Below are positions 6,335 through 64,000 of a stretch of DNA of 64,000 nucleotides, piece by piece. The position numbers and the translations under genes were made by a program. The stretch is from Pelagibius sp. Alg239-R121 (GTDB lineage: Bacteria; Pseudomonadota; Alphaproteobacteria; Kiloniellales; Kiloniellaceae): positions 124,001-188,000 of the forward strand of contig NZ_CAMZOF010000005.1 in assembly GCF_947331435.1 (NCBI RefSeq). Reading direction: 5' to 3'. How positions within the stretch are numbered: the stretch's first letter is position 1; each line of letters opens with the position of its first letter. The notes under the pieces are model-generated. The model searched no databases and had not been told where the DNA came from. It saw nothing but the letters and a program-made list of their open reading frames with translations.

Positions 6335-6381
6335 CCGGACCGAGACCGCGAGTTACAACGCTCGGCTAAACCAGATCTACT

Positions 6382-7659
6382 CTAGCCTCGCTTTATCTCA
6401 CGCCAACCGATATCACGTCTGCAAAAGCCGCCGGGCCAGTCAATACGATCGACGGCGGCGTAGGCGCGGCCTTGCGCCGCAGCAATAGCCGGCGCCTTGG
6501 CCGTGACGTTGAGGACGCGTCCGCCGTTGGCAAGAACCGCGCCGTCTTCTCCTATTTTCGTCCCCGCGTGAAAAACCACCACACCTTCTTCAGATCCGGC
6601 AGCGGACAGGCCGCCAATCGCATCGCCCTTGGCGTAGCTGCCGGGATAGCCTTGTGCTGCCATGACAACTGTCAGCGCTGTTTCGTCGTGCCACTGAAGC
6701 TTCACTTGATCGATGTTGCCGTCACAGGCTGCGATTAAAGCAGGCAGAAGGTCCGACTGGAGCCGCAGCATCAGCACCTGACATTCGGGATCTCCGAAAC
6801 GGACGTTGTATTCGATCAGTTTGGGGCCCTCGGCGGTGAGCATCAGCCCAGCGAAGAGCACCCCGCGGAAAGGTTTGCCTTCGGAATGCAGTCCATCGAT
6901 GGTCGGCTGGACGATTTCTTCCAGAACCCGTTGTTCCATCTCGGCGGTCAGCACCGGCGCGGGGGAATAGGCGCCCATGCCGCCGGTGTTAAGACCGGTA
7001 TCGCCTTCGCCCACGCGCTTATGATCTTGGGCGGAGGCCAGAGCCAGCGCCGAGACGCCGTCGGTCAGGACGAAAAAGCTGGCCTCCTCGCCGGTCATGA
7101 ATTCCTCAATCACCAATTCGGCGCCGGCTTCGCCGAAAACCGCATCGGTCATGGCAGCATCGACAGCCTGCTCTGCTTCCTCAATCGTCTCCGCGATGAT
7201 CACACCCTTGCCGGCGGCCAGCCCGTCGGTCTTGACGACGATGGGCGCGCCTTGAGTACGGATAAAATCCTTGGCCGATGCGGGATCGCGAAAGCGGCCG
7301 TAGGCAGCGGTCGGTATGCCGTACTTGGCACAGATATCCTTCATGAAGCCTTTGGAGCCTTCGAGCGCGGCTGCAGCCGCCGAGGGGCCAAAGGTTTTTA
7401 CACCAAGCGCAGTCAGGCGGTCGACCAGGCCTAAAACCAGTGGTCCTTCCGGGCCGACAACAACAAAATCGATCTTGTTTTCGCCACAATAATTGGCGAT
7501 AGCCTCTAAGTCGTCAGCGCCGATCGCTACGCAGGTCGCAACCGAAGCGATCCCTGCATTGCCCGGCGCGCAATACAACTCGCTGCAGAGCGGCGACTTC
7601 GCAAGAGACCAACAAAGTGCGTGTTCACGCCCGCCGGAACCGATTACAAGAACTTTCAT
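6382..7659 (-). CDS. purD: phosphoribosylamine-glycine ligase (GARS)
   Basis: Second step of purine synthesis: ATP-dependent ligation of glycine to 5-phosphoribosylamine in the cytoplasm. The 425-residue protein starts with [17 protein letters not shown], the PurD N-terminal signature, and contains the ATP-grasp segments [13 protein letters not shown] and the family pattern [12 protein letters not shown] that binds metal and ATP. The C terminus RRDIGWREI is also typical. ATG 7659 is chosen; a TTG one codon upstream is in frame but unlikely. It is transcribed away from xseA, whose start is about 70 bases off, so the two share a divergent promoter region. Length matches the family. Confidence 0.97.
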
Positions 7660-7729
7660 CAAAAAACTTCCCTCTTAGCCCGAGTCGTCCTTCACCGGGC
7701 GCGGCTTTTTAGCATAGGATGCCGACGCA

Positions 7730-9307
7730 ATGAGCGACTTTTCTACAGACGGCGGCGGGCGGGTTCCAGGAGAACCACCCGGACCGGGCAACCTGCCGGA
7801 GTTTTCGGTCTCCGAAATCTCCCAGGCAGTAAAGCGGACCCTGGAGACCAGCTTCGAGCGGGTCCGGGTGCGCGGGGAAATCTCCGGCTTCAAACGGGCG
7901 GCGTCAGGCCATCTTTACATGGCATTGAAAGACGAATCGGCGGTGCTGGACGGAGTCTGCTGGCGCGGTGTTGCCGGCCGCCTGGGTATGCAGCCCGAAG
8001 ACGGGATGGAGGTTATCGCCACGGGGCGACTGACCAGCTATCCCGGGCGCTCCAAATATCAAATCGTCATTGACGGAATGGAGCTGGCGGGCGCGGGCGC
8101 CCTGCTGAAGCTGCTGGAGGACCGCAAACGCAAACTGGCCGCCGAAGGCCTGTTCGACGCTGAACGCAAACGCAAACTACCCTTTCTGCCCAAGGTCATC
8201 GGCGTGGTTACTTCGCCGACCGGGGCCGTTATTCGCGACATCATGCACCGCCTGTCGGACCGGTTTCCGCGACGGGTACTGGTTTGGCCGGTTGTCGTGC
8301 AGGGCGATACGGCGGCGGAACAGGTCGCTGCGGCTATCCGCGGCTTCAACGGCTTTCCCCTGGAGGGCGCTGTCCCACGGCCCGATGTGCTGATTGTCGC
8401 GCGCGGAGGTGGAAGCCTGGAAGACCTTTGGGCTTTCAACGAAGAAGTGGTGGTCCGTGCTGCCGCGGAGTCCCAGATCCCTCTGATCTCGGCAGTCGGA
8501 CATGAAACCGACACGACCCTGATCGATTTTGCGTCGGATCGCCGTGCGCCAACTCCGACGGCCGCAGCGGAAATCGCCGTGCCCGTGCGGGCCGAGCTGA
8601 CGGCACAGACCCTTGATCTGGAGCGGCGTCTGCTGAGTGGTGCCGGCCGGTTTCTTGCCGAGCGCCGCATGGCGGTCGAAGGTCTGGGGCGCGGCTTGCC
8701 GGACCCGAAACGACTGCTCGAAGAAAAAGCGCAGCGCCTGGACGATTCGGCGGAACGTCTCTCCAATGCGATGGGCAATCTGGTCGCATACCGGCGCGGC
8801 GCTCTGGTGGAGCTGGCGGCACAACTCCCCCATCCGCGTCAGCAAATCCGCCTGTCACGCCAGCAGCTTACTGCCCAGAGCGAGCGGCTGCAGTCCCTTC
8901 GCCCGCGTCTGGTCGAGCCCTTTCGCCAGGCTTTCCAGCGGGTCGACGCCGCGCGGCGCCTTGGCGATTCCGGGCGCGATCTGATCCTGGAGCGGCGGCG
9001 CGCCGTTACCGAACTCAACCGCGTGCTCGAGAGTGTTTCCTATAAGAATGTGTTACAGCGCGGCTTTGCCGTGGTGCGAGGCAGCGTCGGCGCCGTGATG
9101 CGCGCAGCTGAAGTTTCCGACGGCATGAAGCTGGATATCGAGTTTCATGACGGTCAGGTTTCGACGTTCGCAGGCAAACCTTCCACTGCGGATTCTTCGG
9201 GGACGGGGCCTGCCGCGGGCAAGGGCTCCGATGCCGCAAAGGCCAAGCGGACTAAGCCTCAGGACAACAACCCGGTAAAAGACGACCCTCAAGGATCTTT
9301 GTTATGA
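7730..9307 (+). CDS. xseA: exodeoxyribonuclease VII large subunit
   Basis: Large subunit of the single-strand-specific exonuclease VII (acts with XseB), 525 residues. The N-terminal OB-fold (about 25-125) begins with the motif [15 protein letters not shown] and includes [16 protein letters not shown]. The catalytic region contains [38 protein letters not shown] and [20 protein letters not shown], all diagnostic. A long coiled-coil region follows. The C-terminal tail of about 45 residues is rich in Ser, Ala, Lys and Asp and looks disordered. ATG 7730 is the start. The stop overlaps the next gene's ATG (ATGA), showing translational coupling with the M23 peptidase. No xseB is visible in the window. 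Confidence 0.96.
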
Positions 9308-62244: not shown

Positions 62245-62279
62245 AGGGCCCGCCGGATCAGATCCGGCGGGCCCTTTCG
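62245..62279. terminator. strong terminator after gcvP
   Basis: AGGGCCCGCCGGATC (62245-62259) and GATCCGGCGGGCCCT (62261-62275) form a near-perfect palindrome of 15 base pairs around a minimal loop, followed by TTTCGTT on the plus strand and, read on the other strand, preceded by TTTTTTC-like bases. It can work in both directions and separates gcvP from the convergent cysteine-rich gene. Confidence 0.85.
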
Positions 62280-62295: not shown

Positions 62296-64000
62296 TCAGC
62301 CTCTGGCGCCTATGCAGAAGGTCTTTCTGATCGTATCGGTGTCGTCGTCAGTCAACCCGGTCGTCAAAGCACGCCGCGTCGAGAGTGTCACCGTGTAGGA
62401 ACAGCTCGGCCAACTCGAGATATCCTCGTGATGGGTACCGAAGGCCGTGTTAACACCGCCGCCCCTTGTATCCGTGCCGCTCGGAAGTGGCGGGATGACC
62501 ACGGGTGCTGCCGTGGTGATACCTAAGCTCCAGGCAGCCATCATTTCGTGGTCCGTGGTGTACTCGATGTCCAGATCGCTGAACAGCGGTGAGCAGGCAT
62601 CGCCACCGCCGCTATGGAACTGCAACAGGTCGAGCAGCGTTACCTCGTTCCAATTGTTGATGTGGATACGGCTGAGCTCGTTGCTGTAATCCGGCGGTGA
62701 TATCGGTCCGCCGACGCGTGTTGCCTCGAAGACGATTGCCACATCGACACCGTTCTTGAGATTTGCAGCGGGAACCTGAGTACCAGCCGCAACGCCCGGT
62801 ACCGGGTTACCGTCAGGGAAGGCCGTGTTGGTCCGGAAACCGATCAGGGCCCCGTTAAATCCATCTCCGAGAGCTGCCGGGTCGACTTCGATCCAGCCGT
62901 CCGCGTCAGGTACGACAACGTGAGTCGGCGGTGGTCCCCAAGGTGTGCCCGGCGGTACGGCCGGTGGCGGGGTCGGATCTACGGTCGCACCGGATCCCGA
63001 AATCATCACGGTCTGGAAGGTCTCTTCCAACCCGGTGCCGTTGACGTCCCAGAAAATTGTCCGGCTGCCGACGATCACCGAACACAACAAACTGCCGACC
63101 AGCGGTGTACGGGTGCCGTTGCGCTCGTAAAGGAAGCGGTAACGCATCTGGACACCAGGTGCCGTTGGTGATTCCGCAGGACAGAAACCACGCAGCTCGA
63201 GGCAATTGTGAAAACCGTAGTCCGGGCCACCGTGGCCGAGCACCGCCTTGTTAGTGAGGCCGTTGCCGGCATCGATGTCACCGTAGATATGGAAGTGCCC
63301 AACGTGGGTGAACCATGGCCGCGGCAGGGGTGGCGGGCAGACGCAGAGACAGAAACGCCGGCAGACCAGGGCACAGAGCCAGTAGCAAAGCTGATGGCAG
63401 AAGATCTCAAGGCCAAGCTGCTTTACGAGCTTAGCGTAACTCTCCTCGTCTTCCTTTTCGACGGCGGCAACCAAGCTGGCCAGCAGTTTCGGCCGGCTGC
63501 GCAGTTTTACGACCGCCTGTGCAAAAGCGTGGATCTCAGGGTTCACATCCTTGATCTCAACATGCGGGAAAGGCCGACAGAAGCGGAAACAGATGCGGAC
63601 GCAACGCCAGGTGCAGATCCAAAGGCAGATCCAGTGACACACACCCTGAAGACCGGCACGCTCCAGAATGATGCGGACGCTGTCGCAGTCGCGGGCGAGA
63701 ACGGCCTTTTCTACAGCCGCCACGGCTTCGCGGTTGGCGATCAGGCGCGCGATCGCCCGTCCGGCCTGTTGCAGGGCCGGTACGAGATGCATACAGCCGA
63801 TGATGTAGATGGGCCGATCCGGATTGCAGAGGATCCGGCATACCAGGTCGCAGCGGACCGAGCAGATCCAGTGACAGATGTAATAGCAATAGCGTTCGTA
63901 ACCCAGCTTTTCGATAAGCTTGCGGAAGGAAATTTCGTCGCGCTCGATCACGGCGCCGGCAAGGCGTTCCAGAACGTCTTTGTCGGATGTGATCTTTGTG
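62296..64000 (-). CDS. cysteine-hexad repeat protein of unknown function (N terminus beyond window)
   Basis: The frame has no stop from 62296 to the window end, so at least 567 residues are visible and the true start is outside. The GTG at 63951 lies inside the first repeat and is not the start. Three modules of about 80 residues each have a leading helix (for example LVAAVEKEDEESYAKLVKQL) and a hexad of Cys every fourth residue: CYYICHWICSVRCDLVCRIL (plus C), CHWICLWICTWRCVRICFRF (plus C) and CHQLCYWLCALVCRRFCLCV (plus C). Numbering from GTG 63951, Cys are at 22-42, 105-125 and 185-205. After residue 206 comes a Pro-rich joint and a domain of about 340 residues (HVGHFHIYGDIDAGNGLTNK) with several Cys and no recognised fold. 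No clear membrane helix is seen. Convergent with gcvP. I do not recognise the family. Confidence 0.85.
   Translation of the reverse strand, partial: TKITSDKDVLERLAGAVIERDEISFRKLIEKLGYERYCYYICHWICSVRCDLVCRILCNPDRPIYIIGCMHLVPALQQAGRAIARLIANREAVAAVEKAVLARDCDSVRIILERAGLQGVCHWICLWICTWRCVRICFRFCRPFPHVEIKDVNPEIHAFAQAVVKLRSRPKLLASLVAAVEKEDEESYAKLVKQLGLEIFCHQLCYWLCALVCRRFCLCVCPPPLPRPWFTHVGHFHIYGDIDAGNGLTNKAVLGHGGPDYGFHNCLELRGFCPAESPTAPGVQMRYRFLYERNGTRTPLVGSLLCSVIVGSRTIFWDVNGTGLEETFQTVMISGSGATVDPTPPPAVPPGTPWGPPPTHVVVPDADGWIEVDPAALGDGFNGALIGFRTNTAFPDGNPVPGVAAGTQVPAANLKNGVDVAIVFEATRVGGPISPPDYSNELSRIHINNWNEVTLLDLLQFHSGGGDACSPLFSDLDIEYTTDHEMMAAWSLGITTAAPVVIPPLPSGTDTRGGGVNTAFGTHHEDISSWPSCSYTVTLSTRRALTTGLTDDDTDTIRKTFCIGARG

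What the first reader, a model, noticed from the sequence alone, without database searches (positions are those of the whole stretch)
63337..64000. Tandem modules with perfect C-x3-C-x3-C-x3-C-x3-C-x3-C hexads
Three consecutive repeats, about 83 and 80 residues apart, each carry six Cys spaced exactly every fourth residue, often with Trp, Ile or Leu between (CHWICLWICTWRC). In a helix this places six thiols along one stripe, a possible metal-binding or disulfide-ladder surface. Each hexad is preceded by an amphipathic helix of shared pattern (AV..E..D...KL...LG). The frame continues past the window edge, so more modules may exist. I know of no described family with this arrangement, so it is the best candidate here for an undescribed protein system.
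Basis: partly seen in the sequence, partly recalled or inferred. Interest (0 to 1): 0.9.

Follow-up and report, generated by a model that had tools for sequence, protein, structure and literature searches.

The report
Four-module cysteine-hexad helical protein
A rare, undescribed bacterial protein carries four tandem helical modules that each end in six cysteines spaced exactly every fourth residue; it may be a thiol-rich metal store, but that function has not been shown.

Summary
The minus-strand open frame belongs to one 661-residue protein that runs past the window edge. It has four perfect C-x3-C-x3-C-x3-C-x3-C-x3-C hexads, three in the window, with modules 77, 83 and 80 residues apart, then a C-terminal part of 343 residues. 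None of 20,000 shuffles gave a hexad. Two relatives were found: a Gallionellaceae MAG (71% identical, four perfect hexads, cut by its contig end) and an Alphaproteobacteria MAG (45%, four modules, two hexad Cys lost). Protein-level selection is clear. A same-genus genome keeps only a tail of up to 60 codons at the same site. Pfam, NCBIfam, PHROGs, PADLOC and PDB gave no credible family. AlphaFold predicts four helices per module, the hexad being the longest (pLDDT about 88 over the modules, pTM 0.70). Best guess, inferred only: a thiol-rich helical store for soft metal such as Cu(I), working like Csp copper-storage proteins without being one: a DUF326 protein mixes Cys steps of 3 and 4, here no step is 3. 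On an ideal helix the hexad winds about 200 degrees, so it is not a straight stripe.

The parts
62296..64000 (-). Part of the 661-aa Cys-hexad gene that lies inside the window; the gene continues upstream for 281 more bases (start codon at L003:2282, equal to G000:C5:188281)
   Evidence: purifying selection
63817..64000 (-). Module 2 (cut by the window edge), hexad at 63826-63888
63568..63783 (-). Module 3, hexad at 63577-63639
63328..63543 (-). Module 4, hexad at 63337-63399, with one extra Cys inside (C-x-C-x-C at its end)
62296..63327 (-). C-terminal part (343 aa plus stop codon), no recognised domain, low-confidence model, six Cys
62245..62275 (-). Terminator-like hairpin (14 pairs, 11 G-C) with a T run just after the stop codon
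   Evidence: 2 such sites found in the stretch, 3.0 expected from shuffles, so weak

Best explanation
A folded, helical N-terminal region built from four copies of one module of about 80 residues (three helices, then one long helix carrying six Cys), fused to a C-terminal part of unknown fold. Most likely the four Cys helices pack against each other through their Cys/Ile-Leu-Val ridges, and their 24 thiols (27 Cys in the module region) hold several soft metal ions, Cu(I) being the likeliest, as a cytosolic store or buffer. Shown: the gene, the four modules, their conservation, selection on the protein. Predicted: the helices, with each hexad inside one. Inferred only: that the thiols meet in space, that they bind metal, that the metal is Cu(I), that the protein stays in the cytosol.
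For: All three proteins have exactly four modules with nearly fixed spacing (77/83/80, 77/83/80, 77/79/81). Same-numbered modules are on the whole more alike between proteins (mean 43%, 12 pairs) than different modules (mean 22%, 54 pairs), so the four-module order looks older than the split, as expected of a closed assembly. All 27 module Cys of the window protein are kept in the Gallionellaceae relative although pS is 0.72 over the aligned length, and 24 of 27 in the distant one. The helical model has pLDDT about 88 over the four modules, with each hexad in one long helix. Residues just before each Cys (c+3) are I, V or L in 46 of 60 places while c+1 is polar or charged (H, R, S, E, K, T, D, Q) in 34 of 60, so the Cys lie beside a hydrophobic ridge, i.e. 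probably buried. In Csp3 proteins Cys in CXXXC pairs on bundle helices bind Cu(I) (passages of PMC5171941). No signal peptide is seen by eye in the window protein (no predictor was run).
Against: No coordinates could be measured, so contact between the Cys helices is not shown. Foldseek found no convincing solved or viral relative (best E 0.14 and 0.35). Strict i+4 spacing is not the pattern of the DUF326 protein looked at, and pointing all six to one axis would need an unusually steep right-handed pitch (about 39 degrees at 7 A radius). The adjacent genes are not shared among the three loci, so no metal gene travels with it. No PF03860 match was found in the genome itself. Two hexad Cys are lost in the distant relative. 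Module 2 of the distant relative is no closer to its namesakes (26 and 24%) than to some other modules (up to 30%), so the shared module order is not clear for that one. The C-terminal part has a Gly/Pro/Thr-rich, surface-protein look (impression), which would fit an exported protein better.
Confidence: 0.35

Rival explanations
1. An exported or surface protein in which the hexad helices are cross-linked by disulfides within and between modules, giving a rigid stalk that carries the C-terminal part.
For: Odd, rigidly repeated Cys; the C-terminal part has six further Cys, of which the three inside the stretch held for all three proteins are invariant. Minicollagens, found in the paper search, use a repeated CX3C pattern for disulfide cross-linking (PMC4863159, listing and abstract start only).
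Against: No signal peptide seen by eye and no export gene recognised directly beside it; i and i+4 Cys on one helix are not expected to pair with each other easily (general knowledge); a fixed number of modules would be unusual for a stalk.
Confidence: 0.2
2. The Cys are small, hydrophobic ridge residues used for tight helix-helix packing (i+4 ridges into i+4 grooves) in a helical scaffold, with no metal and no redox role.
For: i+4 ridges with I/V/L next to each Cys; the strict i+4 pattern fits ridge-in-groove packing better than a parallel bundle (recalled from classical helix-packing work).
Against: Ala, Ser or Gly would be expected to replace Cys at least sometimes; of 27 module Cys none changes in the 71% relative, and the two lost hexad Cys in the distant relative became R and Y.
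Confidence: 0.2
3. Each hexad ligates Fe-S clusters or Zn in a multi-centre electron-transfer or regulatory protein.
For: Six Cys per module could serve one cluster with spare ligands.
Against: No Fe-S or zinc-domain profile match in Pfam, NCBIfam or the PDB.
Confidence: 0.1
4. Precursor of a modified Cys-rich peptide or bacteriocin-like product cut from the modules.
For: Module layout helix + Cys-rich segment; a weak NCBIfam match of one module of the Gallionellaceae protein to the halocin C8-like domain (E 0.012, 16.6 bits against a cut-off of 24).
Against: Below cut-off and readily explained by Cys content; no modification, protease or export genes recognised directly beside the window gene; long C-terminal part; neither the window protein nor the alphaproteobacterial one has such a match. 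Note that a possible metallopeptidase gene does lie 92 bases upstream of the Gallionellaceae copy.
Confidence: 0.04

Closest known systems
Csp copper storage proteins (Csp1/Csp3; Pfam DUF326, PF03860)
   Same: Helical, many Cys including CXXXC steps, no export signal seen (like the cytosolic Csp3s), four Cys helices per unit (that they meet is inferred here)
   Different: No sequence match; Cys steps mix 3 and 4 (a DUF326 protein from a same-order genome, L019: eight steps of 4 and five of 3) while here steps within the hexads are 4; Csp is one short chain with 13-19 Cys, this is four modules of about 80 residues plus a long C-terminal part. The Csp His motif was not looked for.
Minicollagen Cys-rich domains of cnidarian stinging capsules
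   Same: Repeated C-x3-C spacing
   Different: Secreted animal collagens with short Cys domains that form disulfides; no helix module known to me (paper listings, and recall; no sequence comparison made)
Halocin C8-like domain (NCBIfam TIGR04449)
   Same: Cys-rich stretch; weak profile score on one module of the Gallionellaceae protein
   Different: Below the curated cut-off; no such score for the window protein or the alphaproteobacterial one

Membership tests
Csp copper storage proteins (DUF326) | Profile match to PF03860 | tested here: not met
   No PF03860 match for the window part of the protein, for the two relatives, or for the 12 modules one by one; PF03860 found nothing in G000, though it rang in the Bacillus subtilis control and in 1 of 58 relatives, G044
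Csp copper storage proteins (DUF326) | Mixed 3/4 spacing of Cys on the helices of one short chain | tested here: not met
   Cys steps in the window protein's module region: 19 of 4, two of 2, none of 3, five long, against 8 of 4 and 5 of 3 in one DUF326 protein
Csp copper storage proteins (DUF326) | Cys-lined four-helix bundle that fills with Cu(I) | not testable with these tools
   Helices predicted but no coordinates given, no metal data
Halocin C8-like domain TIGR04449 | Score above curated cut-off (24 bits) | tested here: not met
   16.6 bits, E 0.012, in one of the three proteins only
Any described solved-structure family | Sequence or fold match in the PDB | tested here: not met
   phmmer none up to E 10; the module profile lists 41 sequences up to E 10, the best a designed binding protein at 0.003 for the whole sequence but 0.81 for its best stretch, the rest designed bundles, ribosomal S15 and scattered others, matching the leading helices and mostly not the Cys; full-length profile best 0.088, designed; Foldseek none at E 0.001

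The most novel reading that the evidence does not exclude
A new class of metal-storage protein in which a thiolate core of 24 Cys is assembled in one chain from four duplicated modules, each lending one hexad helix: an independent, convergent answer to the Csp copper stores, tied to an unknown C-terminal receptor or enzyme part.
Probability: 0.22. Interest if true: 0.8.

Novelty: categorically new. Interest (0 to 1): 0.55.

Why it matters
If the hexads hold metal, this is a second bacterial way to pack two dozen thiols in a folded protein, built by module duplication, and a ready test case for how strict i+4 Cys ridges can form metal cores. If they do not, it is still an undescribed Cys-dense helical family whose cysteines are held under strong selection, which needs a reason.

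Tried and rejected
Looked for a known family in Pfam, NCBIfam, PHROGs, PADLOC and the PDB by sequence (7, 78, 79) and by fold (61), and in predicted viral structures (96): nothing credible. The whole 661-aa protein went only to PHROGs and PADLOC; Pfam and NCBIfam saw the window part (567 aa), and Pfam also module 1 on its own. The sub-threshold Pfam names for single modules (CATASP, TctC, CARD; E 0.056-0.095, one module each of 12) are taken as chance. Profile hits in G530/G718, G549/G734 (each pair the same place, seen in two searches) and G957 (E 1e-4 to 7e-4) lie antisense to genes that I recognise by eye as purB. The hit in G753 is the tail of what I recognise as ribosomal protein S15, read through a stop. 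All are rejected. Heme c attachment (C-x3-C-H) was considered and dropped, because the His is not conserved in the distant relative and no export signal is seen. A Nif11-type leader was considered from memory and dropped, because Pfam listed no such match at E 10 (HMMER's filters drop most matches above 0.1). Relatives in plasmids, phages and viral contigs: none. No metal operator was named upstream: inverted repeats exist but none was tied to a regulator, and no sigma-70 type promoter was found in L003 200-2900. The gene is not compositionally foreign (GC 0.58-0.61, neighbours 0.55-0.59).

Full report
What is there. The minus-strand frame at 62296-64000 is the 3' part of one gene. The window is G000:C5:124001-188000. 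With the next bases of that contig the gene reads as a 661-residue protein from an ATG preceded by AGGAG, inside an open frame of 724 codons. It holds four perfect hexads at residues 55, 132, 215 and 295. Three are in the window and are its only hexads in six frames; 0 of 100 simulated windows and 0 of 20,000 protein shuffles gave one. After the fourth hexad come 343 residues without a recognised domain.

Relatives. A scan of one genome for each of 84,980 species with short exact peptides from the window protein, which reaches close relatives only, gave 15 stretches, of which 2 encode a relative. L004, a Gallionellaceae MAG contig, is 71% identical with four perfect hexads but is cut by the contig end after 440 residues. 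L005, an Alphaproteobacteria MAG contig, is complete, 45% identical, and has four modules; its first and second hexads have each lost one Cys (to R and Y), the third and fourth are perfect. Profile searches of whole genomes with the full-length alignment gave matches in 2 of 58 relatives (the genome itself and a remnant in G002), 1 of 398 drawn from the phylum (itself), 3 of 116 around L005's genome (itself and 2 false), 1 of 120 around L004's genome (itself) and 4 of 385 of the class (the window's genome and 3 false). The module profile gave 1 of 398 (itself), 2 of 220 (itself and 1 false) and 1 of 219 around L004's genome (itself). These sets overlap. The false matches are antisense to purB-like genes or the tail of ribosomal protein S15, both recognised by eye. 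Phage and plasmid records gave nothing, nor did viral contigs. So the family is real but rare in what could be searched; outside the phylum only the close-relative scan and the plasmid, phage and viral collections were looked at.

Loss in a sister genome. In G002, same genus, the same neighbours (VTT-domain gene, short-chain dehydrogenase, then a convergent gcvP; matched by eye) enclose only a 60-codon tail that follows the dehydrogenase stop directly and matches the last 52 profile positions. Most simply, the gene was once at this site there and most of it was deleted; it is dispensable in that lineage. G001 and G003, same genus, had no match.

Selection. Between the window protein and L004, synonymous differences are near saturation (pS 0.72) while pN is 0.18; against L005 they are 0.65 and 0.39. 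All 27 Cys of the module region are kept in L004 and 24 of 27 in L005; of the ten residue types counted only Trp is kept as fully in L004 (6 of 6), and none is in L005. Leaving the hexad Cys columns out, same-numbered modules of different proteins share 25-71% (mean 43, 12 pairs) and different modules 14-32% (mean 22, 54 pairs). Module 2 of L005 is an exception: 26 and 24% to its namesakes, up to 30% to other modules. On the whole the duplication into four looks older than the split of the three lineages, and the number is four in all three.

Structure. AlphaFold on L004's protein with three rows gives a helical region from residue 8 to 319 at pLDDT about 88 on average, pTM 0.70, four helices per module, the hexads in the long last ones (57-80, 134-157, 217-239, 297-319); the C-terminal part is unmodelled, below 50. 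The window part alone, starting inside module 2, gave the same helix pattern at lower confidence (mean pLDDT 43.5 over all, about 72 over the modules, pTM 0.39). The higher score with all four modules is suggestive of a joint fold but is confounded by the different sequence and start. No coordinates were given, so distances between the thiols are unknown. Foldseek found nothing at E 0.001 in the PDB or among viral models.

The hexad helix itself. Positions just before each Cys are I, V or L in 46 of 60 places; the seventh residue of the hexad is Trp in 11 of 12; positions just after each Cys are polar or charged in 34 of 60. On an ideal helix each step of four drifts 40 degrees, about 200 in all. 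Keeping it on one axis would need a right-handed pitch angle of about 39 degrees at 7 A, steep for a bundle. Ridge-in-groove packing at a wide crossing angle would suit it better (inference from recalled packing rules).

Surroundings. The genes upstream (outside the window) are a short-chain dehydrogenase, a VTT-domain protein, a MerA/lipoamide-dehydrogenase-like flavoprotein, a weakly cupredoxin-like protein (E 0.0009, below cut-off), a LysR regulator and a two-component pair whose best matches are copper/silver and heavy-metal types but below the curated cut-offs. This is a metal-flavoured neighbourhood at best: the dehydrogenase and the VTT gene stand in G002 without the Cys gene. No gene next to the Cys gene is shared with L004 or L005 in the 8-9 kb held of each; the nearest thing is a glutathione-reductase-like flavoprotein, by eye, 3.7 kb from the Cys gene of L005, of the same broad superfamily as the MerA-like one. 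In L004 the gene follows, 92 bases on, a 980-residue protein with a HELGGH motif and no family match; the window's genome has no relative of it (in a search without a positive control).

How it most likely works. Committed reading, confidence 0.35: a cytosolic, folded thiol store for soft metal, Cu(I) first, in which the four hexad helices meet. Csp3 proteins show that many Cys on bundle helices, including CXXXC pairs, can be filled with Cu(I) and stay reduced (passages of PMC5171941; abstract and introduction of PMC10155185). Fixed module number, near-complete Cys retention and the hydrophobic ridge beside the Cys favour a buried thiol-rich core; everything about metal is inferred. Rivals are a disulfide-stiffened exported stalk (0.2), mere packing residues (0.2), Fe-S or Zn sites (0.1) and a peptide precursor (0.04).

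Membership. It is not a Csp by the tests made: no PF03860 match, and the Cys spacing differs (19 steps of 4 and none of 3 in the module region, against eight of 4 and five of 3 in the one DUF326 protein looked at, from a same-order genome). Working like a Csp is not excluded by that. Paper searches for the motif written as CX3C or CXXXC repeats listed papers on minicollagens and other cnidarian or myxozoan material, ferredoxins, small plant proteins and one cancer ligand study, seen as listings only. Searches joining copper storage and Cys repeats listed Csp, copper and metallothionein papers or nothing; no listing pointed to this protein.

Verdict. A genuine, conserved and undescribed protein family with an exact and unusual Cys arrangement; function open; interest 0.55. 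'Categorically new' refers to the sequence family and module, for which no known kind was found; if the Csp-like mechanism is right it would be a new variant of thiolate metal storage.

Noticed in passing
L007 1501-1683 (G002:C6:231254-231424): Same-genus genome keeps only a 60-codon tail of the Cys gene, directly after the dehydrogenase stop codon and before the convergent gcvP: a trace of gene loss.
   Followed up: yes
L004 4943-7885: 980-aa protein with a HELGGH motif and a Cys-rich tail, no Pfam, NCBIfam, PHROGs or PADLOC match, 92 bases upstream of the Gallionellaceae copy of the Cys gene, same strand; possibly a metallopeptidase.
   Followed up: partly
L003 3691-9721 (just beyond the window): VTT protein, MerA/lipoamide-dehydrogenase-like flavoprotein, weakly cupredoxin-like protein, LysR regulator and a CopRS/CusRS-like two-component pair in a row upstream of the Cys gene.
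   Followed up: partly
L005 after 2684 and 6339-7787: A DUF1360 match lies just downstream of the alphaproteobacterial copy of the Cys gene, and a glutathione-reductase-like flavoprotein (by eye) lies 3.7 kb away on the other strand.
   Followed up: no
window 63208-64000, + strand: Long open frame antisense to the Cys gene; taken as a GC-rich shadow, since selection is clear in the minus-strand reading; the antisense reading was not tested on its own.
   Followed up: partly
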